18,769 nucleotides of DNA from Thermoplasmata archaeon (GTDB taxonomy: Archaea > Thermoplasmatota > Thermoplasmata > Thermoplasmatales > GCA-001856825): positions 1 to 18,769 of the forward strand of contig JAJYUV010000016.1 in assembly GCA_021792355.1 (NCBI GenBank), in the 5' to 3' direction. Both the position numbers and the translations under genes were made by a program. The notes under the pieces are model-generated. The model was given only the letters and a program-made list of their open reading frames with translations. It did not search any database and was not told the DNA's origin. Position 1 is the stretch's first letter. Each line of letters opens with the position of its first letter. Shown here in pieces: positions 1 to 12,500 of the stretch.

Positions 1-5
1 AACCA

Positions 6-170: not shown

Positions 171-198
171 TTTTAATTATTCCTTTAATTCTGTAACT
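168..198 (+). terminator. Probable T-rich terminator after Sec61-beta
   Basis: Immediately after the TAG stop the plus strand is pyrimidine- and T-rich (tagttttaattattccttt), with several runs of T. Archaeal polymerase commonly terminates at such T-tracts without a hairpin. No convincing stem-loop is seen. This is inference from composition only. Confidence 0.3.
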
Positions 199-242
199 GA
201 GAGAGAGTTCTCCTGAGGCTCAACATTTTCTTCAGGAAAAGT

Positions 243-252
243 AATAAATTTA
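243..252 (+). promoter_or_regulatory. Possible box A promoter for tRNA-Glu
   Basis: An AT-rich run (aataaattt) sits roughly 22-30 bases before the first base of tRNA-Glu, where an archaeal TATA-like box A is expected. The match to TTTATATA is imperfect, so the call is tentative. Confidence 0.3.
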
Positions 253-272
253 ACTTAAGAATCTGCAACGAA

Positions 273-347
273 GCTCCGGTAGTGTAGCCAGGTCAAGCAT
301 TAGGGACTCTCAATCCCTCGACTCGGGTCCAAATCCCGACCGGAGCA
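273..347 (+). tRNA. tRNA-Glu (anticodon CTC)
   Basis: A complete cloverleaf can be folded by eye. The acceptor stem GCTCCGG pairs with CCGGAGC at 340-346, followed by discriminator A at 347. The D arm is GTGT/GCAT. The anticodon stem AGGGA/TCCCT encloses the loop CTCTCAA, placing CTC at positions 34-36 and so decoding GAG (Glu). The T arm is TCGGG, loop TCCAAAT, then CCCGA. No intron is visible. The 3' half overlaps the end of a decayed tyrosine-integrase reading frame on the opposite strand, the arrangement expected where an element integrated into a tRNA gene. The tRNA itself appears intact and functional. Confidence 0.95.
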
Positions 348-641
348 TACCATGTAGTCTAGGTTGCGCCCGACCATTTCTTTTCCCTCCCTTTTCCGGG
401 GCCCATTAAAATCCAGCTTTTTCATATTCATGCTTACCTCCGAAAATGCGTCTTCAGCATCCGGCTGAATGTAGATCATGGTCATACCGACGCTTGTATG
501 ACCAAGGAGCTGCTATATCAACTCTGGTTTGAGGTCATTCTCCCACAGATGTCTCCCGTAGAGCCTCCTTGCCCTCTGCACCGCAAGGTCATCGGGCAGG
601 TAGAATGATTCACTTCTTGTGTACACGTCTTCGGATAAGTC
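300..641 (-). pseudogene. Tyrosine recombinase (integrase) C-terminal fragment, inactivated
   Basis: The minus strand encodes the C-terminal third of a XerC/phage-type tyrosine recombinase. A stretch resembling SFYLPDDLAVQRARRLYGRH is followed by the hallmark LLGHTS block (catalytic His) and TMIYIQP (catalytic Tyr). The frame is interrupted by an in-frame TAG at 513-515, just before the LLGH block (probably CAG to TAG). It meets a TAA at 648-650, and no N-terminal core-binding domain is present. It cannot make an active enzyme. The last codons run into the 3' half of tRNA-Glu, implying that the att site lay in the tRNA and at the 3' end of the int gene. This marks an old integration event. 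The family call is secure, and the attachment-site reading is inference. Confidence 0.8.
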
Positions 642-691
642 ACAATCTTACCTATAACCATTCCAGAAAATTAAAAATGAGAAAAAGAGCC

Positions 692-700
692 TATTTATAA
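692..700 (+). promoter_or_regulatory. Possible box A (TATTTATAA)
   Basis: A TATA-like run preceded by a purine-rich stretch lies in the roughly 210-base non-coding stretch between the integrase remnant and the first plus-strand gene. Apart from this box and the one at 760 I see nothing coding in that stretch. No start codon lies at a distance that makes assignment firm. Confidence 0.3.
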
Positions 701-759
701 GGCCGTACTATCTCCAGAAGCCAGTGCAATGTGAACTCGTAGCATGCTTCGTAACAAGG

Positions 760-768
760 TTTATAAAT
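760..768 (+). promoter_or_regulatory. Box A promoter for the left-hand gene run
   Basis: TTTATAAAT closely matches the archaeal box A. It would place a transcription start near 787-790. A 12-codon frame (795-833, starting MLPDAD) follows, then the first recognisable gene at 857 with a GGTGAG-type ribosome site. This is the best candidate promoter for the chain of small plus-strand genes. Confidence 0.5.
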
Positions 769-856
769 TGTTTTCGAGTAAATCATCTGTTCTCATGTTG
801 CCTGATGCTGATAAATTGGCAATTGAGGGATAATGCAATATTTACTGGGTGAGAAG

Positions 857-1024
857 ATGGACAAAAAAGAGATAGAGTTTGAGTTCGAGTGTGCGACCAA
901 GAACACGTAGAGGTTCCAGGAGAAATCATCGAGTACTCCTGTTATCGGCACGCTGTATGTTCAGAAATCTGTATTCAGTTCGAAGGAGCCAAAGAAGGTG
1001 AAGTTAACCGTGGAGTGGAATTAG
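857..1024 (+). pseudogene. Small conserved-type protein interrupted by an in-frame TAG
   Basis: Reading from the ATG at 857 gives 17 codons (beginning MDKKEIEFEFE), then TAG at 908-910, then 37 further codons in the same frame including TPVIGTLYVQKSVF, then a second TAG. The pieces join into one 55-residue protein with the look of a small, mostly beta, archaeal protein family. I recall related sequences continuing through this point with an aromatic residue, but cannot confirm this. A ribosome site (gggtgagaag) precedes the ATG. The simplest reading is a nonsense-mutated gene. Recoding of TAG is possible but unsupported, because TAG serves as the ordinary terminal stop of several genes here (Sec61-beta, the large methyltransferase, the medium-subunit oxidoreductase). 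Confidence 0.55.
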
Positions 1025-1092
1025 ATAATAATGGGATTACCTTTGCGGTGCGTTTGCGCTAACAACGTGAGAGACGGGAAGGTGAAGGGGAA

Positions 1093-1230
1093 ATGAGCAA
1101 GACACTCGAACCGGTCCAGTTCCGGAAGGAGAAGGGGAAACTTGAAGGAGTGATCGCGTGTAAAAGAGAAAAGAATGCTGCGGAGAAGCTGAAGGGAAAA
1201 GAGGGCATCATAAGCAGGTGGAATAGATGA
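1093..1230 (+). CDS. Small basic protein of unknown function (45 aa)
   Basis: The ATG at 1093 is preceded by a good ribosome site (aaggtgaagggga). The frame runs 45 codons (MSKTLEPVQFRKEKGK...) and its TGA overlaps the ATG of the next gene by four bases (ATGA), a classic sign of translational coupling. The product is short, lysine-rich and without membrane segments. I do not recognise a family. Support comes from the ribosome site, the coupling, and the fact that a near-copy of its start region (aaggtgaacgggaaatgagtaag) recurs at 3398-3419. It may be an antitoxin-like or DNA-binding partner of the following gene, but nothing in the sequence proves that. Confidence 0.5.
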   Translation: MSKTLEPVQFRKEKGKLEGVIACKREKNAAEKLKGKEGIISRWNR

Positions 1231-1691
1231 ATCCTATAAAATATGATCCAGAACTGAGGGTTTTCCCAAACAGTACATTGCTTGAGCATAAGACTGAGGG
1301 GGCACGCAAGACATACATAATTAAGGATTTGGGGAACGAGAGATTCCTGAGGGGAGAAAAAGGAACCTACTGGTTAAGAAGCCTAAGGCCTACCAACAGG
1401 ATATCGCCTGGCACAGTGGCGCTATTCAGGTTTAAGGATGACATTATTGGAGAAGGTATAATTAAGTCAGCGTCTGTTGAGCACTACTTCAAGGATGGGG
1501 ACGACGAGTACGAGGGTTACATTATGTTTGACTCTGGATCGTTAGTCGCTTACAAGAGAAAAATAACGGTGGAAGAAATCAATTTTCTTATAGCCCCTCT
1601 TAGAAAAACGCTTGGCAAAAGGAACGCTTGGACTCGAATTCCACTCTCGTTTCACGATGCAATACTAGCACTGCAAAGAGGCGATGGATGA
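1227..1691 (+). CDS. Unknown protein, possibly PUA-like fold (154 aa)
   Basis: A 154-residue soluble protein with the ribosome site aggtgg a few bases before its ATG and a 4-base overlap with the upstream small gene. The middle (about residues 45-110) contains GTYWLRSLRP, then VALFRFKDDIIGEGIIKSA, then a strand-like YIMFDSGSLVAYKRKITVEE. This alternating pattern, with a short 'f..k..iiGeG.v' element, is reminiscent of PUA/EVE-like nucleic-acid-binding domains, but I cannot place it in a named family. No membrane segments or signal peptide are seen. The context is a mobile-element-like run of small genes. The coding call is good; the fold is a guess. Confidence 0.72.
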   Translation: MNPIKYDPELRVFPNSTLLEHKTEGARKTYIIKDLGNERFLRGEKGTYWLRSLRPTNRISPGTVALFRFKDDIIGEGIIKSASVEHYFKDGDDEYEGYIMFDSGSLVAYKRKITVEEINFLIAPLRKTLGKRNAWTRIPLSFHDAILALQRGDG

Positions 1692-1764
1692 ATTGACGCA
1701 ACTACCTTAATTGGTGCAATGGGCACTGGAGAGGGAAGAAAGTGACCGAGCATTTGAGGGAGAC

Positions 1765-1794
1765 TGAGGAAATACTGAAGGGGTGAAAAGATTG
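1765..1794 (+). repeat. Gene-start cassette, copy C
   Basis: tgaggaaatactgaaggggt followed by gaaaagattg closely resembles copy A (3036-3072) and more loosely copy B (3424-3462). All three place a GGTGA ribosome site directly before a start codon. Here the cassette favours the TTG at 1792 as the start of the membrane protein. Confidence 0.5.
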
Positions 1795-2166
1795 AATACT
1801 TTACAGCATGTAAGGATAGCCAAAAGGGATCTTGAGGTTGCTGCATCCGCTGTCATCGGTACTGCTGCATACGTGCATTACCTTCAGCTCTTCATACTCA
1901 AGGTTACACTACCCACGCTAATAGCTGGTGTCGTGTTCGGAACCATTTATCTCGCCATTTCCATCGGGCTCTTTAAATCCGTGAATATTTTCTATCTTCT
2001 CGGGATAATCCTGCCGTTTCTGGGCGCTTCTCTTGCCGTTATCAGGTTACATCTCTACGGGTTTGAGGTGTTTTCCGTCATAAACATAGGATTTGACGCC
2101 TTTGTGGTGCCGGCATGTGCGTATTTATTTGCGGTTGAGAGGAGGGGACGCAGAAATGATTCATAA
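1792..2166 (+). CDS. Four-helix integral membrane protein, unknown function (124 aa)
   Basis: The product is hydrophobic, with about four predicted membrane helices: residues ~15-35 (SAVIGTAAYVHYLQLFIL), ~36-58, ~62-84 (NIFYLLGIILPFLGASLAVI) and ~92-112. A short basic tail follows. The start is a choice. A GTG at 1783 is in frame, but it sits inside the ribosome site gaaggggtgaaaaga, whose spacing fits the TTG at 1792. The repeat cassette shared with two other genes supports that choice. The 3' end overlaps the next gene by 11 bases, suggesting an operon. No family recognised. It could be an element-encoded membrane or entry-exclusion protein, but that is speculation. Confidence 0.65.
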   Translation: MNTLQHVRIAKRDLEVAASAVIGTAAYVHYLQLFILKVTLPTLIAGVVFGTIYLAISIGLFKSVNIFYLLGIILPFLGASLAVIRLHLYGFEVFSVINIGFDAFVVPACAYLFAVERRGRRNDS

Positions 2167-2443
2167 GAGGGGAGTGATTTACTGCGCCGCGATAGCTGCC
2201 GTTGCTTTTGCTCTGTTCGCTCCGGTCATTTACCAGGGAACTGCGGTTTATCCCACTCTTCCTCCCGGTGGCCCGTATTTCGGTGGCGCGGAGTTCGCTG
2301 CGAACAGGTACGTTTCCGCAAGTTTCTTTTTTACAGGTTCCGGAGGAAAACTCACCGTCTCGTCTCACGGGAATGCTTATCAACTGGTTTTCGGAAACTG
2401 GGTATTTCCACAGGCTATCCTGAATTCCGGGGTGATTCCATGA
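2156..2443 (+). CDS. Small exported or membrane-anchored protein (95 aa)
   Basis: An N-terminal basic MIHKRG is followed by a single hydrophobic segment (about residues 7-27), giving either a signal peptide or an N-terminal anchor. The remaining ~65 residues are glycine-, serine- and aromatic-rich (for example GGKLTVSSHGNAY) and look extracellular and beta-rich. The ATG at 2156 is chosen over upstream in-frame codons because it is preceded by a strong ribosome site (gaggagggga) and follows from translational coupling with the upstream membrane protein (11-base overlap). Its TGA overlaps the next ATG (ATGA at 2440). No family recognised. It probably works with the upstream membrane protein at the cell surface. 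Confidence 0.6.
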   Translation: MIHKRGVIYCAAIAAVAFALFAPVIYQGTAVYPTLPPGGPYFGGAEFAANRYVSASFFFTGSGGKLTVSSHGNAYQLVFGNWVFPQAILNSGVIP

Positions 2444-2997
2444 TCGATTCCAGGCCAACGGAAAGCCAGGTCTCCTTCATAAACAGGGTCCGGGAGGCAT
2501 CTCCGGAAAGAGAGGAGGTATTCCAGAAGCTTATCAGGGAGATGGGAAAATCCGGCGTGAATGACCTTACCATGCAGGAAGCCTCAGAGTTGATCGATGC
2601 CCTGAAGAAGGTCAGGGTGGAGAACGGCAAATCCGGTTCATCGTACCTGACGGGAAAGCAGCTCTCGTACCTGCAGAACCTTGTCAGGCACCCCGGAAGG
2701 AGGGAAGCATCGGAAAGGTACATTTTGGAACACGGAAAAGAGGGACTGAACTTCCTTGCGATGGACGAGGCTTCAGAACTCATAGACGTGCTGAGAAATG
2801 TCAAGACGGAGGGGGTGGGAAACAATTCCGAAGCTCCGGCCACGAAGAAACAGATCCAGTTCATAAAGAACCTCCAGGTTTTCGGGAAGCAGCTGGGCAT
2901 CACGAGCGAATACCTCGCGAAGCTGAAGAAGGTCACCATTGACGAGCTTACGGGGAAGGAGGCCAGCGGGCTGATTGACAGGCTGAAGGGTGCATGA
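2440..2997 (+). CDS. Protein of three tandem 'KQ...I..L - EAS.LI..L' repeats (185 aa)
   Basis: The whole 185-residue protein consists of three related units of about 50-60 residues. Each opens with T-x-x-Q-x-x-(F/Y)-(I/L)-x-x-(L/V) and closes with (M/G)-x-EAS-x-LID-x-L: TESQVSFINRV...EASELIDALK, TGKQLSYLQNL...EASELIDVLR and TKKQIQFIKNL...EASGLIDRLK. Single copies of this type of motif occur, as I recall, as C-terminal tails of phage and plasmid DNA-processing proteins. A stand-alone triple array is unusual. Each unit is probably a small helical hairpin, perhaps for binding DNA or a partner protein. The start overlaps the previous stop (ATGA). Coding status is strong and function unknown. Confidence 0.78.
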   Translation: MIDSRPTESQVSFINRVREASPEREEVFQKLIREMGKSGVNDLTMQEASELIDALKKVRVENGKSGSSYLTGKQLSYLQNLVRHPGRREASERYILEHGKEGLNFLAMDEASELIDVLRNVKTEGVGNNSEAPATKKQIQFIKNLQVFGKQLGITSEYLAKLKKVTIDELTGKEASGLIDRLKGA

Positions 2998-3035
2998 CGT
3001 GAAAGGAAAGGTTGCGCAGTATCTGAGGGAGATGA

Positions 3036-3072
3036 GTTTGGAAATGAGGAAATTTTGAAGAGGTGAAAATGA
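3036..3072 (+). repeat. Gene-start cassette, copy A
   Basis: gtttggaaatgagg, four variable bases, then tttgaagaggtgaaaatga. It matches copy B (3424-3462) at about 31 of 35 aligned positions and its second half matches copy C (1765-1794). Each copy delivers a ribosome site to a start codon. Confidence 0.6.
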
Positions 3073-3414
3073 ACGGCAGAATTTAGAGAAAGGAAGAAAA
3101 ATTTCTCGAAGCAGAGAGGAGACTTTAGGAAGCCATATAACAGATGTCCTCCAGGCCAACACTGGATTCGTGGATACTGGGCAAAGAACCCATCCGGTTT
3201 AGGGTCTCACTGGGTAAGTGCGCACTGCGCAGATGACACTCAACCTCCAGAAATGAGCGTTATTCGACAGGAGACCCGGACAAGGGGCGGAATACCTCGA
3301 ATTTTCGAGAGGGAAAGAACAATCGTTGAGGAACCTATCACGGAGAATCGTGATGAGTCTATTGAGGGGGATGACGCCAATAACCTGAAGGTCGGTAAGG
3401 TGAACGGGAAATGA
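3069..3414 (+). pseudogene. Frameshifted small gene with CPPGxHW motif
   Basis: The ATG at 3069 follows a good ribosome site (agaggtgaaa) but reaches a stop after five codons. One base over, an open frame of about 113 codons runs to a TGA at 3412-3414. It has no usable start of its own and contains a protein-like segment: RKPYNRCPPGQHWIRGYW, then SHWVSAHC. Removing one A after the ATG would fuse the two (M-TAEFRERKK...), so a single-base insertion is the simplest explanation. The CPPGxHW...HWV..HC pattern resembles small archaeal proteins with a Cys/His-rich turn, possibly metal binding. The last third is acidic and low in structure. The TGA overlaps an ATG (3411), like its neighbours. An assembly or sequencing error remains possible. 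Confidence 0.5.
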
Positions 3415-3423
3415 GTAAGAAAT

Positions 3424-3462
3424 GTTTGGAATTGAGGGGAGTTTGAAGAGGTGAGAATATGA
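3424..3462 (+). repeat. Gene-start cassette, copy B
   Basis: gtttggaattgagg, four variable bases, then tttgaagaggtgagaatatga. Near-identical to copy A 388 bases upstream, it supplies the ribosome site for the 50-residue gene at 3459. Confidence 0.6.
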
Positions 3463-3611
3463 CAGAGGAAGAATTTGTTAACAGATTCCAGATGGCAGTT
3501 AAAGTTGCTTCTAGCAAAGCGTTAGTTTTTTGGTCAAATATGGGTGATTACAGCGTGAGTTGGAATAGAATAAAATGTCAGATTCTACGAGGCGAGAAAT
3601 ATGAATGGTAA
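3459..3611 (+). CDS. Small protein of unknown function (50 aa)
   Basis: The ATG at 3459 is preceded by the ribosome site gaagaggtgagaat (repeat copy B). The frame gives 50 residues (MTEEEFVNRFQMAVKVASSK...) with a helical, mildly acidic N-terminus and an aromatic-rich C-terminus containing DYSVSWNRIKCQ, ending in W. The stop lies inside the next gene: the ParB-like reading frame begins at 3601, so the two overlap by 11 bases and are probably translationally coupled. No membrane segment and no recognisable family. Length, ribosome site and coupling support a real gene. The position suggests a small accessory or regulatory partner of the ParB-like operon. Confidence 0.55.
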   Translation: MTEEEFVNRFQMAVKVASSKALVFWSNMGDYSVSWNRIKCQILRGEKYEW

Positions 3612-4383
3612 AATGTCGTTGACTGAAATAAAATTGAGTGATTTAAGAGTCAGTGCAAATAATGTTAGGAAGGAGGACGCAGAGGTTAATCTCGATGGGT
3701 TGATAGCTAACATAAAGGATATTGGCCTTCAACAACCCATTGTTGTAGTCAAAAACGGCAACAAATATGACATAATTGTGGGACAGAGACGATACCTTGC
3801 TGCTAAAAAGATGGGGTGGGATACAATTCCTGCACGAATACTTGAAAACATCGAAACCACTCAGGCCAAGGTCATCTCTTTCAGCGAAAATATACATCGA
3901 CTTGATCTTAGTTACTCTGACAAAATGCATGTGACTCTAAGTTTGCTGGAATCCAATGATAACAATGTCAAGAAAGTAGCTGGCATTTTAGGTGTTTCAG
4001 AGGCGACTATACGGAATTATTTAGGATACAGCGCTGTTCCAGTCGAAGTGAAGCAGCTGGTAGAAGCCCATAAGATGAGCGCGGCACAAGCGATTCGTAT
4101 AACGCAAGCGTTTGAAGATGAGACCAAAGTGGCAGAAATTGCAAGGAAGATGCTCCAGTTCACCAGGTCTGATGATAAAAGGAGGTTTGTTCAAATGGCG
4201 AAGAACAGTCCGGATGAACCGGTTGAAAAGATCGCAAAACATATCGCAGATACCAGACCTATTACTATATATCTTAGCGACAACGTTTGGAATTATTTGT
4301 CAAAGGAAGCAAAGAATTCACAATTGGATATAGAAGATATAGCGTCTATCGCGGTTGAGGAATGGGTAGGAAGAAGAGCATGA
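3601..4383 (+). CDS. ParB/KorB-like protein with ParB CTPase domain and HTH (260 aa)
   Basis: ParB-family proteins bind a DNA site through a helix-turn-helix and use CTP as a switch to clamp and slide on DNA. They act in partition or gene control, and related domains act as nucleases. The three N-terminal ParB boxes are all visible: LQQPIVVV (about residues 43-50), GQRRYLAAKK (61-70) and ENIHRLDLS (96-104). A helix-turn-helix follows at about 122-142 (KKVAGILGVSEATIRNYL), then a linker with VPVEVKQLVE and a C-terminal segment (about 219-257) that may dimerise. No ParA gene is visible nearby. A paralogue lacking the ParB domain follows directly (ATGA overlap), then a nuclease-like protein and a PP-loop protein. 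ATG 3601 has gaggcgag upstream; ATG 3613 is an alternative start. The family is firm, the role open. Confidence 0.9.
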   Translation: MNGKMSLTEIKLSDLRVSANNVRKEDAEVNLDGLIANIKDIGLQQPIVVVKNGNKYDIIVGQRRYLAAKKMGWDTIPARILENIETTQAKVISFSENIHRLDLSYSDKMHVTLSLLESNDNNVKKVAGILGVSEATIRNYLGYSAVPVEVKQLVEAHKMSAAQAIRITQAFEDETKVAEIARKMLQFTRSDDKRRFVQMAKNSPDEPVEKIAKHIADTRPITIYLSDNVWNYLSKEAKNSQLDIEDIASIAVEEWVGRRA

Positions 4384-4958
4384 GTGTAGATGATAGCGAA
4401 AATGATGATTGGGCGATTATATTTTCTAATACGAAAACAAAGAAACGTTCTCTAGATATCCTAAGCATTTCTGACGCATTCGAAAGACTGATTGACGCGG
4501 AGGGGGATGTCAAAAAAGTTTCGAATAAAGCCGGCCTCCATCCAGAGATGATTCGTGAATTTCTCAAAGCAAAAACTTTGCCCCAAGAAGTGAGAGATAT
4601 GATTAAGAATCGTGAGATCGATAGCGTGGACACCGTAAGGGCACTCTCAACATTGAAAAATAACAAACAACAAATACAACTAGCGAAAGAGACCAAGAAT
4701 CTCACAAGTATGGAAGTAAGAGATGTCGCAAAGCTGATCAAAGAAGCGAGGATAAGTGTCGAAGACGCAGTATCTAGAGTAACTGGATCGAGAAAAGAAG
4801 CGGTTCATCTACTTTTCATCTCGCTTGATAATAAGCACTTTAAATTACTTAAAAAATTCTCGTCTACGATTGGTGTCTCCGAAGCTGTTTATCTTGAACA
4901 AATAGTAGAAAAATTCCTGGAAAGGCATAATGAGGGTGAGGAACTTGGAACTGACTGA
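4380..4958 (+). CDS. ParB paralogue without the ParB catalytic domain (192 aa)
   Basis: This protein aligns by eye with the second half of the ParB-like protein just upstream. DVKKVSNKAGLHPEMIREFL parallels its HTH (NVKKVAGILGVSEATIRNYL), TLPQEVRDMI parallels AVPVEVKQLV, and the C-terminal stretch LFISLDNKHFKLLKKFSSTI parallels ITIYLSDNVWNYLSKEAKNS. The GxRR and ENxxR boxes are absent. It may therefore read the same or a related DNA site, or pair with the full-length ParB, without CTP binding. ATG 4380 is preferred: it overlaps the upstream stop (ATGA) and has aggaag seven bases before it. ATG 4362 in the same frame is an alternative that adds MGRKKS. The end overlaps the next gene by 29 bases. 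Confidence 0.78.
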   Translation: MSVDDSENDDWAIIFSNTKTKKRSLDILSISDAFERLIDAEGDVKKVSNKAGLHPEMIREFLKAKTLPQEVRDMIKNREIDSVDTVRALSTLKNNKQQIQLAKETKNLTSMEVRDVAKLIKEARISVEDAVSRVTGSRKEAVHLLFISLDNKHFKLLKKFSSTIGVSEAVYLEQIVEKFLERHNEGEELGTD

Positions 4959-5904
4959 TGATATTACTATCCTTAACTTAGATAATATAGTCAAAGAACT
5001 GAAGCAAGAAATTAAAAACCGAAAACCACCAGGCCCAGTTCCTGGTTCTGTTCTTTTTGAATCTGTTTCTGCTAGGTTGCTGGCTGGTGTATTTAATCTC
5101 CCATTTTTTACTAACGATAATAGAAAACGTAGTTCAGACTGTGTTAAATGGCATGGATCGATTTTAAATAAATGTAAATCAAAGAAAGGACAAGACATAT
5201 CTGTTTTTGGGCATTCCCTTAAATTTCCCGTCGATGTAACATTAACGAATTCTCTCCCTCAGCTGGGAAGAGAGAAGGGCAGCTTTGAGACGCATGTTGA
5301 TAAATTTGTTTCTAAACATGATACAGATCCTTTCGGCCTATTCATTGTTCCATCCATAAAAGAACGTTGCTGGAACGTGCTGCAAAGTGAGGATAAATTC
5401 CAACTTGTCATTCTTGACTTAAAAGCGCTTACAGATCTGTTTCGAGCACAGGAATTTGGCATTTACTTTTCACATGCCGCTGTTCGTGATCTGTTTCGTG
5501 GTTTGTCAAGTGATCTTAAAAATAGTCTAACTAAGGCAAGGTATGTACAAAGCTTAAGAGAAGACGTAAAAAGATTTGTTAGGGATCAGCTGACAAGAAA
5601 GACCGATCTATTCATTTCTTTACGCTCCCTTTCCTTTGCTCGAGAAATCAGTCGAAAGAGTGTAGATGAGAAGGATCTTATAGATGGTCTTTTGCAAGAC
5701 TCACTTGTTAAGAAATACATGGGCATCGTGGACAAGCGGATCCTCAACAAAGATAAACTAACTGAGCATCTTCAGAAATCTGTAAAAAATTATAATTTAC
5801 TGACCACCTATCCAGCCTATAGGGGTGCAGGTAATTTATACGAAGCTTTGGACTGTGGTGACCTGCAGCAGGAATTCAGATTTATTGACGAAATATGTGT
5901 TTAA
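4930..5904 (+). CDS. Unknown protein with possible PD-(D/E)XK (AlwI-like) nuclease core (324 aa)
   Basis: I do not recognise this protein with certainty. The N-terminal half has features that recall AlwI-type restriction endonucleases: a helix with a glutamate (VLFESVSARLLAGVFNLPF, about residues 41-59), an acidic residue in GQDISVFG (~89), a strand PVDVTLTNS (~100-108), and then a Q...E..sfEtHv pattern (~111-124) like the 'EVTL..g..q...E.epv.rH' block of that family. A further strand (FGLFIVPSI) follows. Residues 150-324 are mainly helical and lysine-rich. The start overlaps the ParB paralogue by 29 bases. TTG codons just downstream are alternative starts with a better ribosome site (gggtgagg). 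Genetic linkage to two ParB-like proteins suggests a targeted nuclease, but the catalytic assignment is inference. Confidence 0.75.
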   Translation: MRVRNLELTDDITILNLDNIVKELKQEIKNRKPPGPVPGSVLFESVSARLLAGVFNLPFFTNDNRKRSSDCVKWHGSILNKCKSKKGQDISVFGHSLKFPVDVTLTNSLPQLGREKGSFETHVDKFVSKHDTDPFGLFIVPSIKERCWNVLQSEDKFQLVILDLKALTDLFRAQEFGIYFSHAAVRDLFRGLSSDLKNSLTKARYVQSLREDVKRFVRDQLTRKTDLFISLRSLSFAREISRKSVDEKDLIDGLLQDSLVKKYMGIVDKRILNKDKLTEHLQKSVKNYNLLTTYPAYRGAGNLYEALDCGDLQQEFRFIDEICV

Positions 5905-5954
5905 TCCTTCATGTGAAAACAGGAGAAACAGGAGAGATTAAATATGATAGTCTA

Positions 5955-5964
5955 TTATTATATT
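5955..5964 (+). promoter_or_regulatory. Probable box A upstream of the PP-loop gene
   Basis: ttattatatt is centred about 25 bases before the GTG at 5984, fitting a leaderless internal promoter. It lies in the only sizeable gap (79 bases) of the operon, beside a short direct repeat (acaggagaaacaggagag). A ribosome site (aaggtgg) is also present, so both expression modes are possible. Confidence 0.4.
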
Positions 5965-5983
5965 ACAAGGTAAGGTGGAAATA

Positions 5984-6724
5984 GTGGCAACTGATGAGAA
6001 AGCTCGTTGGATCCTGAGCTATGGTGGTGGTGTCAACACAACTGCATTAATGATTTACTTAGTCGAAAATAAGATGCCAATCGATGAAGCAGTTTTTGCT
6101 GATACTGGAGGAGAAATCCCTGAGACTTATTCATACTTGTCCATTGCACGAGAGTATCTCAAGAATCATGGGATACCGTTGAAAATAATACACGTCAGCG
6201 TCGGCGGAACTGGTCTTTATGAATGTGCAACTCGCAGGAGAGTAATCCCTTCACAGGTCTGGAGATGGTGCACCCGGGATTTTAAGATCAGACCAATTTA
6301 CAGATATTACAAATCGCTTGGGGTACATATAAATCAATACATAGGGATAGATTATGGCGAAGTACACCGTATAAAAGATAGCCAAGAAGACTTTGTCTCT
6401 AATCACTATCCACTTGTTGATGCCAAAATAGACCGAAAAGGCTGTATTGACATTATCAAGTTAGAAGGATTACCCGTACCGCCGAAAAGTGGTTGCTACT
6501 TTTGCCCATTTAATAACCATGCACGGTGGCAGTACATACTCGAAAACCACCCAAACTTGTATAACAAAGCCTTAAAACTTGAGGAGAATTCTAAACATTT
6601 TCCCAAGCAGAAACTGAATTCCTATATGTTAAGGGAGTTGAGACCCAAGCTCATTGAAATGAATTTGACTCTGCAGGAAGATGATTCCTCTCTGAATATG
6701 TGTGGGGGGCACTGCATGCTTTAA
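5984..6724 (+). CDS. PAPS reductase-like PP-loop protein with cysteine cluster (246 aa)
   Basis: A member of the PP-loop ATP pyrophosphatase superfamily related to PAPS/APS reductases and to the sulfur-transfer proteins DndC, SspD and IbrA. The N-terminus has the adenylation loop SYGGGVNTTAL (about residues 12-22), then FADTGGEIPETY (~38-49), typical of CysH-like enzymes. Downstream are WRWCTRDFKIRPI and SGCYFCPFNNHARW, and the protein ends with MCGGHCML. These cysteines could hold an iron-sulfur cluster. The start is GTG 5984, which has aaggtgg at proper spacing; the GTG at 5975 lies within that ribosome site. Its position after two ParB-like genes and a nuclease-like gene recalls IbrA/IbrB-type PAPS-reductase plus ParB pairs. 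Sulfate assimilation is less likely, as no sulfur-assimilation genes are adjacent. Confidence 0.85.
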   Translation: MATDEKARWILSYGGGVNTTALMIYLVENKMPIDEAVFADTGGEIPETYSYLSIAREYLKNHGIPLKIIHVSVGGTGLYECATRRRVIPSQVWRWCTRDFKIRPIYRYYKSLGVHINQYIGIDYGEVHRIKDSQEDFVSNHYPLVDAKIDRKGCIDIIKLEGLPVPPKSGCYFCPFNNHARWQYILENHPNLYNKALKLEENSKHFPKQKLNSYMLRELRPKLIEMNLTLQEDDSSLNMCGGHCML

Positions 6725-6895
6725 GGATGTAGTCTTCTTATCATAATTCTTTCTCCTGCGTTTACACATTATTACGCCCAGATCATAAACCATCGTAGGC
6801 CTGAAATGTTCCGTCACAAGGTTCGGCTCTCCAAATATCCCACTTATATGAGACTCGCTGCAGTCGCATGGATACAGCTACCTTGATAGGATGAG

Positions 6896-7018
6896 TTATC
6901 TTTGTTTCTTCCTCGTCACCGCCATTACACCGGCAATGGCAATGACAGCAATGACAACTGCGAAGAAATAGCATGCAATGCAGCCAACGCTTATAAATGA
7001 ATAAAGGATGAAACACAT
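6896..7018 (-). pseudogene. Remnant of a C-terminal membrane anchor (about 40 aa)
   Basis: On the minus strand a frame ending RKKQR contains one long hydrophobic helix (FAVVIAVIAIAGVMAVT). This is the type of C-terminal anchor found on archaeal cell-surface or solute-binding proteins. The upstream part (YSFISVGCIACY) is also hydrophobic and no larger extracellular domain is present, so it looks like a leftover 3' end. It lies inside the roughly 360-base stretch 6725-7085 between the PP-loop gene and the next plus-strand gene. I see nothing else there except a box A. A genuine 40-residue membrane peptide cannot be excluded. Confidence 0.3.
6990..6998 (+). promoter_or_regulatory. Box A promoter for the 317-residue gene
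   Basis: cttataaat matches the archaeal box A and would start transcription near 7015-7025. That leaves a short leader before the candidate start codons at 7044, 7047 or 7086. Confidence 0.4.
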
Positions 7019-7085
7019 GGGTCGATAGCCATGATGCTTCACATTGATGTATGTAACCTGCATTTTCCAGCATGTTCCACGCGCT

Positions 7086-8039
7086 ATGACATCGTTCTTT
7101 CCGGAGATATACAGTAGCATGCTCTACCGTGACGTCGACCGCAGCTTGGGCTACATGCTCTCGGTTTCCATGGTGCAGAATCATCCCCTTATCCCCGTGA
7201 TGGAGAAGGAGCTCGGCGAGGTTCCGCTCCACACTGACCGTATAGGTGAGGAGTCATACATAGACCTGTTCGTGCAGGGAGAGAAGGCTGCAAGGTTCGA
7301 GAAGCTGGTCCCGTCCTATGACCATGAGATGAGGGGAGATTTGCTCACCGTCAAGATCAAGTCCGCCGAGATGGACATCGTCAGCGGCATGATGGACAGG
7401 ATTCTTGATGTAAGAACCATGATGCCGGGAGGCCTCTACCTCTCCGGATCACGGATAAGGGCGGAGTTCAGGTTCCATCCGTCAGACCTGCACAGGGTCA
7501 CCGTACTTGCCGGCGGGATACTTCAGATGAGGAACGGCATGGACATCGTTTCGCTTGGCCCGGATCCGGGAGGCATAGCATCCATTGGATCGGTCAACGA
7601 TCGCATATCCCTCTCTGTAGTCGGTTTCGACACCGATCTCCCCGCGGAAATTGTATCTGCGGGAATAACGGAAGCATATTTCGAAGTCAACAGCGCACAT
7701 GCAATGAAGGATTCACTCAGGAGTATTGTCATATGCCCCTCCTCCACCGTTCCCGATTCATGGCAGCCGCTTCCCGGTGACAATGGCATCTACCTTGCTG
7801 ACGTCACCGCACCGTTCGTCAACCTTGTGCGCAACGGCGCCAATGAGGCACACATACCGAGGGCAGGTACCATCATGAAGATCGCCGGTGGAAAGCTCAG
7901 GGCTTTCGCATTCATGCCCAGGTCGCTGCTGAAAGAATACCTGGGCATCCTCTTCAAAGTGTCAGGGGATCGCCCTGACCTGCACTTCGATCTAAGCTAT
8001 GTGGGCGATTACGGCAAGGATATATGGGAATGGGTGTGA
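7086..8039 (+). CDS. Conserved-looking cytoplasmic protein of unknown function (317 aa)
   Basis: A soluble 317-residue protein I cannot assign. It has no signal peptide, no membrane segment and no helix-turn-helix that I can see. The sequence is well balanced, with many methionines, and falls into two halves. The first (about residues 1-150) includes FFPEIYSSMLYRDVDRSLGY and VKIKSAEMDIVSGMMDRILD. The second (about 150-317) is glycine-rich, including AGTIMKIAGGKLRAFAFMPR and ending GKDIWEWV. Higher G+C and codon choice set it apart from the AT-rich ParB operon before it, suggesting resident chromosomal or older sequence. ATG 7086 is chosen because protein-like sequence starts there. TTG 7044 and ATG 7047 are in frame upstream and closer to the box A. 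A regulator or fatty-acid/nucleotide-binding role would be a guess. Confidence 0.7.
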   Translation: MTSFFPEIYSSMLYRDVDRSLGYMLSVSMVQNHPLIPVMEKELGEVPLHTDRIGEESYIDLFVQGEKAARFEKLVPSYDHEMRGDLLTVKIKSAEMDIVSGMMDRILDVRTMMPGGLYLSGSRIRAEFRFHPSDLHRVTVLAGGILQMRNGMDIVSLGPDPGGIASIGSVNDRISLSVVGFDTDLPAEIVSAGITEAYFEVNSAHAMKDSLRSIVICPSSTVPDSWQPLPGDNGIYLADVTAPFVNLVRNGANEAHIPRAGTIMKIAGGKLRAFAFMPRSLLKEYLGILFKVSGDRPDLHFDLSYVGDYGKDIWEWV

Positions 8040-8076
8040 TGGACATGCACACAGTTTCAGAAGTGGGGTGACATAA

Positions 8077-8277
8077 ATGGCAGGGATCGAGGGAGAGGCG
8101 AAGAGGGTCATAGGCTTCGGGGTTGGGGAATTTTATACGTTTGTTCACAGGACTCCGGTTGGGCCGGTGAGCATACAGATACCGAGGGTAATGGTGGCGG
8201 GTGCCCCGGAGACCGTGAGGTTCGCAATTGAATGGGAGGGCAACGGCAATGGAATGCCGCCCGACCCGGACGACTGA
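8077..8277 (+). CDS. Small protein of unknown function (66 aa)
   Basis: The ATG at 8077 is preceded by a strong ribosome site (ggggtgacata) 37 bases after the 317-residue gene, so the two probably form an operon. The 66-residue product has a beta-like centre (YTFVHRTPVGPVSIQIPRVMV) and a glycine/asparagine-rich, acidic tail (GNGNGMPPDPDD). No membrane segment or cysteines. No family recognised. A T-tract about 50 bases downstream may end the transcript. Confidence 0.55.
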   Translation: MAGIEGEAKRVIGFGVGEFYTFVHRTPVGPVSIQIPRVMVAGAPETVRFAIEWEGNGNGMPPDPDD

Positions 8278-8326
8278 AGAGTCCGGGAAAGCTATATGAG
8301 ACAGATAAATGCCAGGCTGGTGTTAT

Positions 8327-8425
8327 TTCATCTTTTTTTAGGATGATGTTTCCGCTGTCCTCGTAAAACCCAACAATATCTTCTTCTTTGACACCAAGTT
8401 TGTCCGATCTTTCCTCAAGCTGCAC
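8327..8425 (-). pseudogene. AbrB/SpoVT-type DNA-binding domain remnant
   Basis: The minus strand encodes QLEERSDKLGVKEEDIVGFY followed by EDSGNIILKKDE. This matches the second half of a swapped-hairpin AbrB domain ('lp.eirekLGikeGD.v.f.e..g.iilkk'). The first beta strand (about 15-20 residues) is missing. The frame is closed by TAA directly upstream and only a GTG is available as start, so this is most likely the residue of an antitoxin or regulator gene. No toxin partner is visible beside it. Confidence 0.4.
8330..8340 (+). terminator. T-tract terminator after the 66-residue gene
   Basis: catcttttttta gives seven consecutive T residues on the plus strand about 50 bases after the stop codon, a plausible archaeal terminator. 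No hairpin seen. Confidence 0.35.
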
Positions 8426-8469
8426 TTACCTTGGCAGTACATATAGACATTCACAAAAAAATAGAAGGG

Positions 8470-8931
8470 TTATTTTGGTGTCAGCTTCATGTCGCTTGTG
8501 ATGGTGAACTCGCCATTGTGAACAACCAGATTGCCATTACTATTGAAATTGAGGTAGTATTCACCTGGCTGCAGTGTGACATTAAAGGATCCGAAGCTAG
8601 TCCATGACAAATCATTTACGAAGCTGTAATTCTTGGCAAGATATTGGGCCTCCGTCGTCAAAAAAACCTTCATCAAAGTGTTTGAAGTCCAATTGCCTGA
8701 GAGGAGGGAGGGCACGCTTACATTGAACGGATATAGGTTACCAATCTCCCACCCGCTCCCATTAAGGGAGAAATTAGTCTCGTAGCCTGCCGGCAGGATA
8801 ACCTGAGGGCCATCCGATGGAGTCGATTGCTTGTTAGCCGTGTACTCTTGATACGCGCCGATGGAGATGAAAGAAATTAAGAAGACTGTCACAATCACAA
8901 CAGCCGTAAGTGTAGATTTATCTGCCGGCAT
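8470..8931 (-). CDS. Membrane-anchored exported protein (153 aa)
   Basis: The N-terminus MPADKSTLTAVVIVTVFLIS continues as one hydrophobic helix (about residues 8-27), followed by an extracellular region of about 125 residues rich in Ser, Thr, Asn and aromatic residues. The external part has several NxT/NxS sites (for example NFSLNGSGW, NVSVPS, NWTSNT) and a beta-rich pattern (GSFNVTLQPGEYYLNFNSNG). It resembles the many N-anchored surface proteins of acidophilic archaea, but I cannot name a family. It stands alone on the minus strand. Upstream lie gtgaggga as a possible ribosome site and ataatattg as a box A candidate. Coding confidence is good, function unknown. Confidence 0.7.
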   Translation of the reverse strand: MPADKSTLTAVVIVTVFLISFISIGAYQEYTANKQSTPSDGPQVILPAGYETNFSLNGSGWEIGNLYPFNVSVPSLLSGNWTSNTLMKVFLTTEAQYLAKNYSFVNDLSWTSFGSFNVTLQPGEYYLNFNSNGNLVVHNGEFTITSDMKLTPK

Positions 8932-9061
8932 TTATTTCCCTCACAATATTATTCCATATTAGTTCAAATAGTTATCCCTGTGATTATGCACCAAAAGAAC
9001 CAGTGTAGAGCACTATCTCCTGATCTAGAGTCGGGGAACTGAAGTAGTGCCCCCCTTGCCA

Positions 9062-9214
9062 CTATCTCACGTTCCTGTCCAGTTCCGTGATCTTCTCCCT
9101 GAGTATCTGCGAGAACTCGGTGAAGTTCGTGCTCTGCCTTAGCGCTTCCTCGATGATGCTGAAGTCCTGGAACTTTCTGTCATTCCATCCCTTATTGTAT
9201 TTCTCGCTTCTCAT
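9062..9214 (-). CDS. Short charged helical frame, unknown (50 aa)
   Basis: Within the roughly 440-base stretch 8932-9375 I find only this frame. It starts at an ATG (complement of 9212-9214), with a stop codon two codons upstream, and runs 50 residues (MRSEKYNKGWNDRKFQDFSI..., ending ITELDRNVR). It is highly charged, amphipathic and likely helical, which could be a coiled-coil segment or the tail of a lost larger protein. No family recognised and no clear ribosome site. A genuine small gene and a remnant are about equally likely. Confidence 0.3.
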   Translation of the reverse strand: MRSEKYNKGWNDRKFQDFSIIEEALRQSTNFTEFSQILREKITELDRNVR

Positions 9215-9375
9215 TGCCTAGGGTGCAGCTTCTTCAGCACCCACAAGTGTACCTTTAGCTTTTATCATGGGTTAACACATCAAGTAAGATACAGGAACCA
9301 TCCTATTGCCCTGCAAAACGAGAAAAGAGATGGAAATCTTTAAGGAACCGTTTCAGCACAAGACCAGACCATGGA

Positions 9376-9549
9376 TTATTCAGGGTTCCTTCTGGGGATC
9401 GTGAAAGCCTCAACATCATCCTTGGAATAAGTATTGAAATCCTCAGTACAACCGTTGCAATGGAACCTCATCACGTAGTAAGGACCATAGGTCCACTCCT
9501 TCATTAATCTTGTATCTGCAGATCTGCATAAGGGACAGCCAGTGGCCAT
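9376..9549 (-). CDS. Small zinc-ribbon protein (57 aa)
   Basis: A 57-residue protein with two CxxC knuckles: C5-P-L-C8 near the N-terminus and C31-N-G-C34 in the middle, the spacing of a zinc ribbon. The region between contains an aromatic stretch (EWTYGPYYVMRF). Such small zinc ribbons often bind nucleic acid or partner proteins, but no specific role is evident. I chose the ATG at 9549, because on the minus strand cttaaatg lies about 27 bases upstream, fitting a leaderless transcript. In-frame ATGs at 9555, 9558 and 9573 would overlap the start region of the divergent methyltransferase gene. Only a few bases separate the two starts, so their promoters overlap. Confidence 0.65.
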   Translation of the reverse strand: MATGCPLCRSADTRLMKEWTYGPYYVMRFHCNGCTEDFNTYSKDDVEAFTIPRRNPE

Positions 9550-9558
9550 GCACATCAT

Positions 9559-12500
9559 ATGGATAGTTTGCATTTAAGATTTTCACAGGGTAATCCAAAA
9601 AATATTATCAGCTATATGATTTCACATGTAATGCCCGGCAATCCTGAGATAAGCATCTCCAGACCAAGCTTGTCTGAAATCGAATCCCTGGTTCAGAAGA
9701 TATCACGCATCTATGAGGATATTAAATCGGCCTACAAGGATCCAGAAAAGTTTATCGACGTCCTTTTTCATGGTGAGCATTTCACCTCCATGGACCTGGC
9801 TATTGAGCAGAAACCCGAGACATTCACCATAGAAAGGGTGGTGAGACCGCTGCTCGATTTCCTGGGTTATTCAATGATCGGCGAAACAACCCTCCGGACT
9901 CCCTCCGGCAGAAGAATACCTGATTTCACCATCACCGCACCTAGAAGTCCCACCGTCAAGCTTTATGTGGAGGTTGAACCCATCAACACTCCGCTTTACC
10001 AGGAGAGAAAGGGGAGGGGGCAGGTGCAGCAGTGGTTGATCTCCAAGGCGTCAGAAACTGAATATGGGATAGCATCTGACGGACTAATATGGAATCTAGT
10101 TAGATTCGATGAAGAAAGCGCTATGATCGTGGACGTTCTCACGGTATACCTTCACGATATTTTCAAGGCCGTTTCCACAGGTTCCAGAATAGAGGACCCA
10201 ATTGTGGGCCTGTGTTCTGAGTTCCTGAATTTAGCCTCCTCAAGAATCCCGGATTTTCTCATGGGGCACATACTGGAAACAACAGAGAAAAAGGAAGACA
10301 TAACTGAGGAATTTTACGGGAAGTATGTGAGATATGTCTTCGGTGTGGATGAGGACAGACAACCCACCAGGGAGATAAGCCTCATAGATTCTGTGAGACC
10401 GCCAACCAGTGTAGGCAGGTCCGAAAGGGCATTGTTCTCCGTCGTCACCATGAACAGGCTCATGTTCATCTCATTCCTTGAGGACAAGGAACTTGTGAAC
10501 AAGCAGCTTCTCCAGGGTCTCTATACACAGTATGAGAACGGAACATACTATGACAGCTTCTACAAGGCCATTTTGAAGGTGCTTTTCTTTGAGGTCTTCA
10601 ACAAGAACCTCAGGGACCGGAATCCCAGGGTAAGATCAGATTTCATACTTGGCCCTCTGCCATACCTCAACGGTGGTCTTTTCAGGACAGTGCTGCCAGA
10701 TGAGGAGAAGTACGATATTGATAATGATGCCCTCAAGATAATAATATTCGACCTTCTGGGGAAGTACAGCATAGGTGTTAGTGACGCCGCAGTGATCAAA
10801 CCCGAGATCCTGGGTTACATATTCGAGAAGACAATCAACGACATCTCCGTGTCGGAGAACAAGCAGAAGTCGCTGGGAGCCTATTACACACCCGATGATG
10901 TGGTCAAGTTCATACTCAGGAACACCCTGGACACGAAAATTGACGAGATAATTCGCGAGGGCATGTCCCAGCATCATGATCAGGCATTGAGGAATGTCAA
11001 GAGCCTGGGCGAATTCATAAGGGGAATAAATGAGGGCAGAATAGACAGGAAAACGGCGATGTCTATTGTTACAAGGATGGACTCCATCAGGATAATAGAT
11101 CCTGCCTGTGGTTCAGGGCACTTCCTCAGTGCGACCCTAAATGATCTGACAAGAGTCATAGCATCGATCTTCATAGCCCTTGACCAGGAATTCTCACTCT
11201 ACGACATAAAGCAGAAGATCCTTGCCTATAATATCTACGGGGTTGAGATAGACCCAAATGGCGCAGAGATAACAAGACTACGGTTATGGCTTTCCCTCAT
11301 AGGGGAAATAAGGAGGGACAGTTCAGAGCAAATGAAGACGCTGCCGAACATAGATTTCAACATTGTCAGGGGCAACTCACTCATCGGCATCTATGACGAA
11401 CCGGTGAACGTCCCCCTAGAAAAGCTGGATCTTGAGCTCGATGATGTGGACACGCCTATGTACCAGATCTCCCGAATCACCGGACAGGATGTCAGTGACA
11501 TCTGGGAACTCATAAGAAGTGCAAAGAGGAGCAATGTTACGGATGCCTACGAGAGACTCATAAATATCTACAGGGGGCTCTCGGGAGAGGTGGCCCTGAG
11601 TGTCAGGGGCTTGATGGTAGACATAAGAAGGACGCTATACAACCTGATGGATCATGACTATCTTAACTATGTCAAGGTTGCGACCATAAATGGGGATATC
11701 GATATCAGCCCATCTGATCTCAGGAACAGACATGCTCTTCACTGGCCAATTGATTTCCACAATGTCGTGAGGAGCGGGGGTTTTGACGTGGTCATAGGAA
11801 ACCCCCCATACATTGAGGACAGGGATTATGACAGTATCGATCTGCAAATTGTAAAGAGCATGGGCAAGAGAGGGAGGGAAAAGGTCCCTGCATTCTATGC
11901 GTCAAGGGATTCCGGGAACACCCATGCCTATTTTATTGAGAGGTCTCTCAAGATCCTGAAGGAAAATGGCAGATTTGGCTTCATAGTGCCCATTTCCCTT
12001 GTTTCAACGGACAGAATGGCCAGCATAAGAGCTGTGATACATTCGAAGTCCGGCGAGGTATCATACTATGATTTCGATGATAGACCCGGTAAAATCTTTT
12101 CTGGGATACAAGATTGTAGATCTACCATCGTGATCACGAAAAAGGGCTGTGGAGTAAATAAAGTATTAACAAGCAAATACCACAGGTGGTACTCCAGGGA
12201 CAGGCCCTCACTATTTGATAAACTCAAGACAACGACATACAACCTGAACAGTGGAAGCGAGTTGGTTCCCAAAATAGGCAACCAGATCGAGTTTGCTATT
12301 CTTGAAAAAATGAGGAAACAGGCGTCGGGCAAAACTGTGGTAGATTTTCTGAGCAAGAATGGTAAAAAGGTATGGTACCACAATGCGCCTCGATACTGGA
12401 TACATGCACACTATGATGAGTTTGTCCCACAAGCCGAGTACTACAGAGACTTTTCAATCGATAATAAGACAGGTAAAATAATGCTTGACGGAAAACCATA

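What the first reader, a model, noticed from the sequence alone, without database searches (positions are those of the whole stretch)
3459..6724. Candidate system: ParB-like CTPase, catalytic-less ParB paralogue, nuclease-like protein and PP-loop sulfur enzyme
Four consecutive genes, most with overlapping ends, combine a complete ParB-type protein, a shorter paralogue, a protein with a possible AlwI-like nuclease core, and a PAPS-reductase-like PP-loop protein with paired cysteines. ParB plus PAPS-reductase pairs (IbrA/IbrB type) are known, and PP-loop proteins act in DNA phosphorothioation (DndC, SspD). A version with a second ParB and a nuclease, in a defence-rich island without ParA, does not match any system I know. 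A sulfur-based mark with a dependent nuclease, or a partition-derived defence module, are both possible.
Basis: partly seen in the sequence, partly recalled or inferred. Interest (0 to 1): 0.75.

Follow-up and report, generated by a model that had tools for sequence, protein, structure and literature searches.

The report
Mobile ParB and sulfur-enzyme gene cassette
A defence island, probably archaeal, carries a small mobile gene cassette that joins two ParB-type DNA-binding proteins to a sulfur-type enzyme; relatives in several archaea, a viral contig, a casposon and a bacterium keep these three genes but vary the fourth, most often using a proteasome-like gene, so it looks like an undescribed DNA-marking or conflict module whose job still has to be tested.

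Summary
A (ParB, both CTP-binding motifs), B (ParB HTH plus weak RHH, no CTPase domain) and D (PP-loop) are co-conserved in Thermoplasmata, Bathyarchaeota, Nitrosarchaeum, one Chloroflexota MAG and a viral contig: of 15 fetched loci with a close D, 7 have A and B within 5 kb; of 135 with a distant D, none has B. C is an orphan. Its slot elsewhere holds a proteasome-like Ntn hydrolase (6 loci), an MBL nuclease-like gene (1) or nothing (2). C's nuclease fold could not be tested (pLDDT 31.5). D belongs to a PP-loop clade with five fixed cysteines and matches no assimilatory-reductase model. The same clade sits beside BREX-1 genes in six loci. In one Nitrosarchaeum genome the cassette is cargo of a casposon with 83-nt perfect inverted repeats. 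No ParA-type motif was found. Best reading: a mobile ParB clamp that brings a sulfurtransferase-type enzyme to DNA, with an exchangeable fourth gene, in defence or element-element conflict; the biochemistry is inferred. It varies the known ParB plus PAPS-reductase pairing; my paper searches showed no account of the proteasome-like version.

The parts
3459..3611 (+). 50-aa ORF overlapping the start of ParB; possible leader gene. At this place four related loci carry an 80-103-aa gene that looks by eye like a C2H2 zinc finger, which this ORF does not resemble by eye
   Evidence: Sequence read; codon-usage score best in this frame but only -0.029. Small genes in L010, L012, L071/L152, L173; no Pfam family over cut-off for the two scanned (L012, L173)
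3601..4383 (+). Gene A: ParB-type protein, ParB_N (3619-3897), HTH_ParB (3940-4158), RHH-like C-terminus (by eye)
   Evidence: Pfam ParB_N E 9.6e-17, HTH_ParB 2.7e-5; TIGR00180 106.8 bits; phmmer to Spo0J 6sdk_A E 2e-18 and to Noc
3781..3801 (+). CTP-binding motif 1 of A, GQRRYLA (G61-Q62-R63-R64 and A67 invariant in 8 cassette ParBs)
   Evidence: Alignment A2; the motif's meaning is recalled from Spo0J/Noc
3886..3900 (+). CTP-binding motif 2 of A, ENIHR (E96, N97, R100 invariant in 8 cassette ParBs)
   Evidence: Alignment A2; meaning recalled
4362..4958 (+). Gene B: shorter paralogue, HTH_ParB (4452-4748) plus weak ribbon-helix-helix (4818-4928), no CTPase domain
   Evidence: Pfam HTH_ParB E 1.2e-8, RHH_3 0.0047 (below its cut-off); alignment A3 of 8 B proteins, 19-28% identity to the window
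4930..5904 (+). Gene C: orphan 324-aa protein in the exchangeable fourth slot. By eye only: E44, D89 and D102-V-T104 could be a PD-(D/E)XK-like core (5194-5241)
   Evidence: One hit, itself, in the protein search; no family; no relation to the Ntn-hydrolase profile (hhalign probability 0.4%); AF2 pLDDT 31.5; coding frame
5975..6724 (+). Gene D: PP-loop (PAPS-reductase/SspD-like) enzyme; start 5975 or 5984 (both GTG)
6017..6040 (+). Variant PP-loop of D, S-Y-G-G-G-V-N-T (residues 15-22)
   Evidence: S15, G17, G19 and N21 in 120 of 121 aligned rows, 1 gap
6443..6505 (+). Cysteines C157, C174, C177 of D (possible Fe-S or metal ligands)
   Evidence: 121 of 121 aligned rows; ligand role inferred from NcsA/TtuA/LarE/DndC
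6701..6715 (+). C-terminal C243-GGH-C247 pair of D (possible sulfur-carrying dyad)
   Evidence: 120 of 121 aligned rows, 1 gap; role inferred; this tail is modelled with pLDDT under 50

Best explanation
A mobile cassette with an A-B-D core and an exchangeable fourth gene. A is a CTP-gated ParB clamp. B is its CTPase-less partner, which adds a second HTH/RHH DNA-binding unit. Together they would load at a specific site and coat the DNA next to it without ParA, so for recruitment or regulation and not for segregation. They would bring in D, a PP-loop enzyme that activates its target with ATP and transfers sulfur through a cysteine-bound Fe-S centre, so that D modifies the DNA (or something bound to it) and marks element or host DNA. 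The fourth gene is the executor or processing factor: a proteasome-like Thr-hydrolase in 6 of the 11 A+B loci seen, an MBL nuclease-like protein in one, the orphan C here. Shown: gene content, motifs, co-conservation, slot exchange, casposon/viral/BREX settings. Inferred: clamp loading, recruitment, Fe-S centre, sulfur transfer, DNA as target, executor role of the slot gene, anti-invader or inter-element conflict as the purpose.
For: A+B within 5 kb of D in 7 of 15 close-D loci against B in 0 of 135 distant-D loci, Fisher p 2e-8 (A and B profiles built from these loci); window A and B alone had already found the same seven. In 256 class-of-G005 genomes the three with B over 100 bits are the three with D over 340 bits; in the class of G002 both occur in G002 (400 genomes for D at E 1e-40, where one more has a distant D; 360 for B). 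L187 keeps A-B-Ntn with a different PP-loop protein. Ntn hydrolase in the slot with catalytic T/D/K conserved. D clade beside BREX-1 genes in six loci, all six BREX-1 genes confirmed in the one genome tested throughout. Cassette inside a casposon, on a viral contig, with an integrase gene (L173) or a type I restriction subunit (L010) nearby. A-D have GC 0.38-0.41 against 0.49-0.54 for three flanking genes.
Against: No cysteine desulfurase, nickase or translocase of the Dnd/Ssp kind is among the PADLOC families shown for the 10 window proteins scanned (for the type IIG and GmrSD proteins only the best 25 are shown). Nothing shows that D works on DNA: its fold neighbours include tRNA thiolases, LarE and GMP synthetases. 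L188 has A, B and an MBL gene but no D in the 16 kb fetched, and L170 has B and D without A, so the core is not strict. C is unrelated to the slot genes it was compared with. B-like matches of 34-84 bits occur in nine further genomes that have no close D. Seven distant-D loci have weak ParB-like hits within 5 kb, so ParB near a PP-loop gene is not special by itself. Casposon and viral residence fits plain element housekeeping equally well.
Confidence: 0.42

Rival explanations
1. Element-maintenance or gene-regulation module. The ParB pair acts like KorB/Noc or IbrB, a CTP-clamp regulator or stabiliser of integrated elements, and D (like IbrA) serves regulation rather than DNA modification; no defence function.
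For: Found in a casposon, on a viral contig and near an integrase gene (L173). IbrA/IbrB of phages and archaeal viruses are described as co-activators of prophage genes or prophage transcriptional regulators (passages of PMC4490671 and PMC8813620). Most thaumarchaeal integrative-conjugative elements of one survey carry a ParB-like gene (passages of PMC6563490).
Against: No ParA-type motif. The D clade also sits beside BREX-1 genes and the window lies among type IIG, Mrr-like and GmrSD-type genes. A threonine hydrolase with its catalytic residues conserved is odd for plain regulation.
Confidence: 0.3
2. D acts on RNA, a protein or a small molecule (tRNA thiolation or a cofactor as in NcsA/TtuA/LarE), and the ParB pair merely regulates the operon.
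For: Structural neighbours of D include NcsA, TtuA, LarE and TilS; an Ntn hydrolase beside a PP-loop enzyme recalls amide chemistry (recalled analogy to asparagine synthase).
Against: Linkage to DNA-binding ParB proteins and to BREX-1, and best defence-library match SspD. Rare and sporadic distribution (2 of 400, 4 of 256, 3 of 300 and 2 of 294 genomes at E 1e-40), unlike housekeeping tRNA thiolases.
Confidence: 0.15
3. In this window the cassette is a local remnant or chance mix: the usual fourth gene was lost and an unrelated orphan, C, fell into the slot.
For: C has no homologue found and no relation to the Ntn family; the small ORF before A does not resemble the small gene at that place in four other loci (by eye).
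Against: C overlaps B by 29 nt, is in frame and has codon usage like its neighbours; slot genes vary in other loci too.
Confidence: 0.1

Closest known systems
IbrA/IbrB (ParB-like plus PAPS-reductase-like pair of phages and prophages)
   Same: A ParB-superfamily gene with an IbrA gene on viruses and prophages (passages of PMC4490671, PMC8813620); that IbrA is PAPS-reductase-like is recalled
   Different: Here there is a second, CTPase-less ParB (B), a fourth slot gene and a distinct D clade; D has no second Pfam domain, whereas IbrA carries DUF3440 (recalled)
Ssp and Dnd DNA phosphorothioation systems (SspD, DndC)
   Same: D is an SspD-like PP-loop protein (114.5 bits) with a GCxxCP-type cysteine pair; a GmrSD-family protein 8 kb downstream (14599-16473) also matches SspE, at 65.5 bits, but HEC-06 better, at 150.7
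   Different: No SspA/B/C or DndA/D/E among the PADLOC families shown for the 10 window proteins scanned; DndC models only about 15 bits
BREX type 1 and type 4
   Same: Close relatives of D sit beside BREX-1 genes in six loci, and type 4 BREX uses a PAPS-reductase (passages of PMC12839542)
   Different: The window has no BREX gene set beside D; type 4 replaces the methyltransferase, while the D-linked BREX locus tested in full keeps PglX
Noc/KorB-type ParB proteins acting without ParA
   Same: CTP-binding motifs and HTH; sequence match to Noc structures
   Different: RHH-like C-terminus, paired with B and D; no link to cell division seen
New proteasome homologs of archaea, bacteria and phages (survey in PMC8665760)
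   Same: The commonest slot gene is a proteasome-like Ntn hydrolase
   Different: That survey reported no genomic contexts suggesting a function (passage); here a conserved cluster is seen. Which of its families this is was not tested. The window itself has C instead

Membership tests
ParABS partition | ParB with N-terminal CTPase motifs and HTH | tested here: met
   ParB_N and HTH_ParB over cut-off; G61QRR and E96N..R100 invariant in 8 proteins
ParABS partition | Cognate ParA ATPase next to ParB | tested here: not met
   No KGGxGK[ST] in ORFs of 60 aa or more of the window or of 11 related loci; a motif scan, not a profile search
ParABS partition | parS sites | tested here: inconclusive
   Repeat search of 1-9000 gave short leader-like repeats and no clear palindrome array; no site-specific test
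Assimilatory PAPS/APS reductase (CysH) | Match to curated CysH/APS reductase models | tested here: not met
   None of TIGR00434, TIGR02055, TIGR02057 listed for D at E 0.1, though they are listed (below cut-off) for the other PP-loop protein in L187
Assimilatory PAPS/APS reductase (CysH) | PAPS-reductase fold | tested here: met
Ssp phosphorothioation system | SspD-like PP-loop protein | tested here: met
   PADLOC SspD E 1.7e-33
Ssp phosphorothioation system | SspA, SspB and SspC partners | tested here: not met
   Not among the PADLOC families shown for the 10 window proteins scanned (best 25 only for two of them); smaller ORFs not scanned
Ssp phosphorothioation system | SspE-type restriction protein | tested here: inconclusive
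   GmrSD-family protein 14599-16473 matches SspE at 65.5 bits but HEC-06 at 150.7 and Orf5 at 118
Dnd system | DndC with DndD/DndE | tested here: not met
   DndC models 14-15 bits; no DndD/E among the families shown for the 10 window proteins
BREX | BrxC plus PglZ core in the locus | tested here: not met
   Not among the families shown for the 10 window proteins scanned (the type IIG protein matches PglX only below its type IIG models); present beside D relatives in L190 and L170/L192
IbrA/IbrB | IbrA with PAPS_reduct plus DUF3440 (recalled) | tested here: not met
   D hits PF01507 only at E 0.1; that DUF3440 defines IbrA is recalled
AlwI-type nuclease (gene C) | Match to PF09491 or a PD-(D/E)XK fold | tested here: inconclusive
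   No PF09491 match up to E 10, though HMMER filters may hide weak ones; AF2 model unusable
Sulfur modification of DNA | Phosphorothioate or thiolated base in host DNA | not testable with these tools
   Needs mass spectrometry

The most novel reading that the evidence does not exclude
An undescribed class of archaeal and bacterial conflict system, carried by viruses, casposons and islands. A two-protein ParB clamp (one CTPase, one CTPase-less) loads at a site and delivers an Fe-S PP-loop sulfurtransferase that writes a sulfur mark along the clamped DNA, while an exchangeable fourth protein (a proteasome-like Thr-hydrolase, an MBL nuclease, or the orphan C) acts as effector or licence. The same enzyme clade has been swapped with BREX-1, giving BREX-1 loci that carry both a methyltransferase and a sulfur enzyme.
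Probability: 0.25. Interest if true: 0.85.

Novelty: new variant of a known kind. Interest (0 to 1): 0.62.

Why it matters
It gives a genomic context for a proteasome-like Ntn hydrolase, a superfamily for which the 2021 survey reported no suggestive contexts (passage of PMC8665760), and ties it to ParB clamps and a sulfur-type enzyme on mobile elements. If the core works as proposed, ParB's CTP-gated clamp would be a targeting device for DNA modification. D-clade genes beside BREX-1 suggest a second, unrecognised chemistry in some BREX loci, testable by mass spectrometry.

Tried and rejected
C as a conserved partner: rejected. The protein search found only itself; no match in viral contigs or phages, one chance-level plasmid match at E 0.2, no relation to the Ntn profile or to the MBL gene of L188 (best E 0.085 for a single comparison). 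PF09491 (AlwI) was searched in 119 genomes to obtain members for a profile comparison; 1 of 119 rang and it was not pursued. The AF2 model of C failed, so no fold search was run on it. In viral contigs the Ntn family was found only in two records of similar length, one of them the contig of L071, counted here as one locus; none in plasmids.

Rows dropped: the tree was given 41 of the 150 loci later ones; L174 was left out as a copy of L017, five (L025, L026, L029, L030, L031) gave no usable row, and 12 of 120 listed D proteins and the window were added, making 53 rows. Of 68 neighbour ORFs listed, 58 were scanned, the eight of L187 and two of L188 left out; those two scans show only the first 25 of 40 and of 119 families. 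The cysteine counts use the 120 best of 885 homologues; the window is in them twice. The Ntn counts use the 120 listed of 152 plus four seeds, some of which recur in the list.
Full report
WHAT IS THERE. The window holds four same-strand genes at 3601-6724: A (ParB, 260 aa), B (198 aa), C (324 aa), D (249 aa, or 246 from the second GTG). A matches ParB_N and HTH_ParB over their cut-offs, TIGR00180 at 106.8 bits and Spo0J/Noc structures. Both CTP-contact motifs (GQRR..A; EN..R) are invariant in eight cassette ParBs (motif meaning recalled). B has the ParB HTH and a weak RHH, no ParB_N. D is PF01507, best PADLOC model SspD 114.5 bits, DndC about 15. C matches nothing above chance. A, B and C overlap; C and D are 70-80 nt apart. 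The finding's start coordinate belongs to a 50-aa ORF before A. A, B, C and D have GC 0.38-0.41, against 0.49-0.54 for three flanking genes, so the island looks acquired.

IS IT CONSERVED? D as an alignment (A1) brought 70 loci from genome contigs and 80 from viral contigs (the viral list was cut at the best 80). With the window's own A and B as queries, A relatives over 100 bits turned up in seven loci: L001 (Chloroflexota), L004 (Thermoplasmata), L007 and L009 (Nitrosarchaeum), L010 and L012 (Bathyarchaeota), L071 (IMG/VR contig); B relatives at 28-60 bits lay in the same seven. By profile, 7 of 15 loci with D at 250 bits or more have A and B within 5 kb; of 135 with a weaker D, 7 have a weak A-like hit (19-36 bits) and none has B (Fisher p 2e-8; the A and B profiles were built from these loci, the discovery was not). 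Of the other 8 close-D loci, 5 are Chloroflexota loci sharing one BREX cluster (L002, L003, L005, L008, L011); L006 starts at D; L013 and L072 show neither. Independently, a search with B of the 256 genomes of the class of G005 gave 12 at E 1e-8, three of them over 100 bits, the same three that have D over 340 bits; the other nine score 34-84 bits and have no close D. In the class of G002, 1 of 360 genomes has B, and it is one of 2 of 400 with D at E 1e-40, the other being a distant D. The cassette is rare: D at E 1e-40 in 2 of 400, 4 of 256, 3 of 300 and 2 of 294 genomes.

THE FOURTH SLOT IS EXCHANGEABLE. A and B together were seen in 11 loci: the window, the seven above, L173, L187 and L188. 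Between B and D, or just after B, six of them (L004, L010, L012, L071/L152, L173, L187) carry a 208-235-aa protein matching Proteasome PF00227 at 33-68 bits (five scanned) or grouped with those that do (L012). Against true archaeal beta subunits it scores 22.7 and 42.4 bits for the two tested, cut-off 224. In 124 aligned rows (four seeds and the 120 listed, with overlap) the Thr after Met is present in 123 (1 gap), and Asp and Lys at what I take for the proteasome D17/K33 positions in all 124 (position numbers recalled). The family has 152 members at E 0.001 among the 7995 candidates scored. L188 has an MBL nuclease-like gene directly after B and no D in its 16 kb; L173 has Ntn and, 470 bp on, an MBL-like gene just under its Pfam cut-off, 23% identical to the first (E 1.5e-11). 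L007 and L009 have no slot gene but a gene before A that is PIN in L007 (33.9 bits) and of the same cluster in L009. L001's slot is disrupted by a transposase-like insert (read by eye). L187 is the strongest case: A, B and Ntn at lower similarity (130, 84, 127 bits), with a different PP-loop protein (409 aa, PRK13795-like, below that model's cut-off) in place of D; the pairing was kept or rebuilt with another enzyme of the same kind.

BREX AND MOBILE ELEMENTS. The BREX cluster next to D was tested gene by gene in one genome (L190, same genome as L002): BrxA, BrxB, BrxC, PglX, PglZ and BrxL, each at 228-1360 bits, PglZ of type 1B. In the genome of L170/L192 (class of the Bathyarchaeota locus L010) BrxA, BrxC, PglZ and BrxL were tested and met; there D sits with B but without A. 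The paper seen on BREX says type 4 replaces the methyltransferase with a PAPS-reductase (passages and abstract of PMC12839542); D beside a PglX-bearing BREX-1 is not in the passages I saw. L007 holds a casposon: Cas1 and DNA_pol_B_2, 83-nt perfect inverted repeats whose outer ends are 256 and 10368, with B, A, the PIN gene and D inside, a 7-nt repeat just outside them and a second Cas1-like ORF 66% identical beyond. Neighbours of other cassettes include an integrase gene (L173), a DDE transposase (L172) and a type I restriction subunit (L010).

HOW IT MAY WORK. See Best explanation. Supported by sequence: a CTPase ParB, a CTPase-less partner, no ParA-type motif, a PP-loop enzyme with fixed cysteines, a swap-in fourth gene, a mobile and defence-rich setting. 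Not shown: any activity. The nuclease call for C rests on the eye alone. The GmrSD-family gene 8 kb downstream is an SspE-like relative by a weaker score (65.5 bits, HEC-06 150.7), so a link to D cannot be excluded.

PRINT. Ten searches were made: ParB with PAPS reductase or phosphoadenosine phosphosulfate reductase, with proteasome, with PP-loop (104), with casposon (93), IbrA/IbrB (92), BREX with phosphoadenosine phosphosulfate reductase (46), proteasome-like/Ntn with anti-phage or archaeal virus (52). None of the papers listed appeared from title, abstract or passages to describe this cassette; for only 15 of 634, 15 of 88 and 8 of 627 papers were listed. I saw passages of PMC10853773, PMC8665760, PMC6459918, PMC6563490, PMC8813620 and PMC4490671; PMC13329287 held none of the terms (54). 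No paper was read whole. Subscription papers and supplements were not searched.

Noticed in passing
L007:256-10368: A Nitrosarchaeum casposon (Cas1, family B DNA polymerase, 83-nt perfect terminal inverted repeats) carries ParB, HTH-ParB, PIN and the PP-loop gene as cargo; a second Cas1-like ORF lies beyond it, so two casposons may be in tandem.
   Followed up: partly
L190:1-12742 (same genome as L002) and L170/L192: BREX-1 gene sets with a close relative of D at one end; PglX confirmed beside it in L190; the one in L170/L192 also has a B-type gene.
   Followed up: partly
L188:8123-9148, 9206-10993: ParB plus HTH-ParB pair followed by an MBL nuclease-like gene, next to a ParB_N-DNA-methyltransferase fusion, no D-type gene in the 16 kb.
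   Followed up: partly
L171:5841-10499: A distant D relative in a run with a HerA/TraG-like ATPase, an N6/N4 methyltransferase and a C5 cytosine methyltransferase.
   Followed up: no
window 9559-16473: Defence island downstream: type IIG RM-like protein, Mrr-like nuclease, GmrSD/HEC-06-like protein (SspE at a weaker score) and a short reverse-strand ORF that looks by eye like part of a serine recombinase (14074-14511).
   Followed up: no
window 1057-1102 and 3375-3420; 1765-1789, 3045-3069 and 3433-3457: Repeated leader-like stretches, 72-88% alike, some lying just before start codons; possibly copied regulatory leaders or an element edge.
   Followed up: no
L010, L012, L071/L152, L173: A small gene (80-103 aa) that looks by eye like a C2H2 zinc finger precedes ParB in these cassettes; the window lacks it.
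   Followed up: partly
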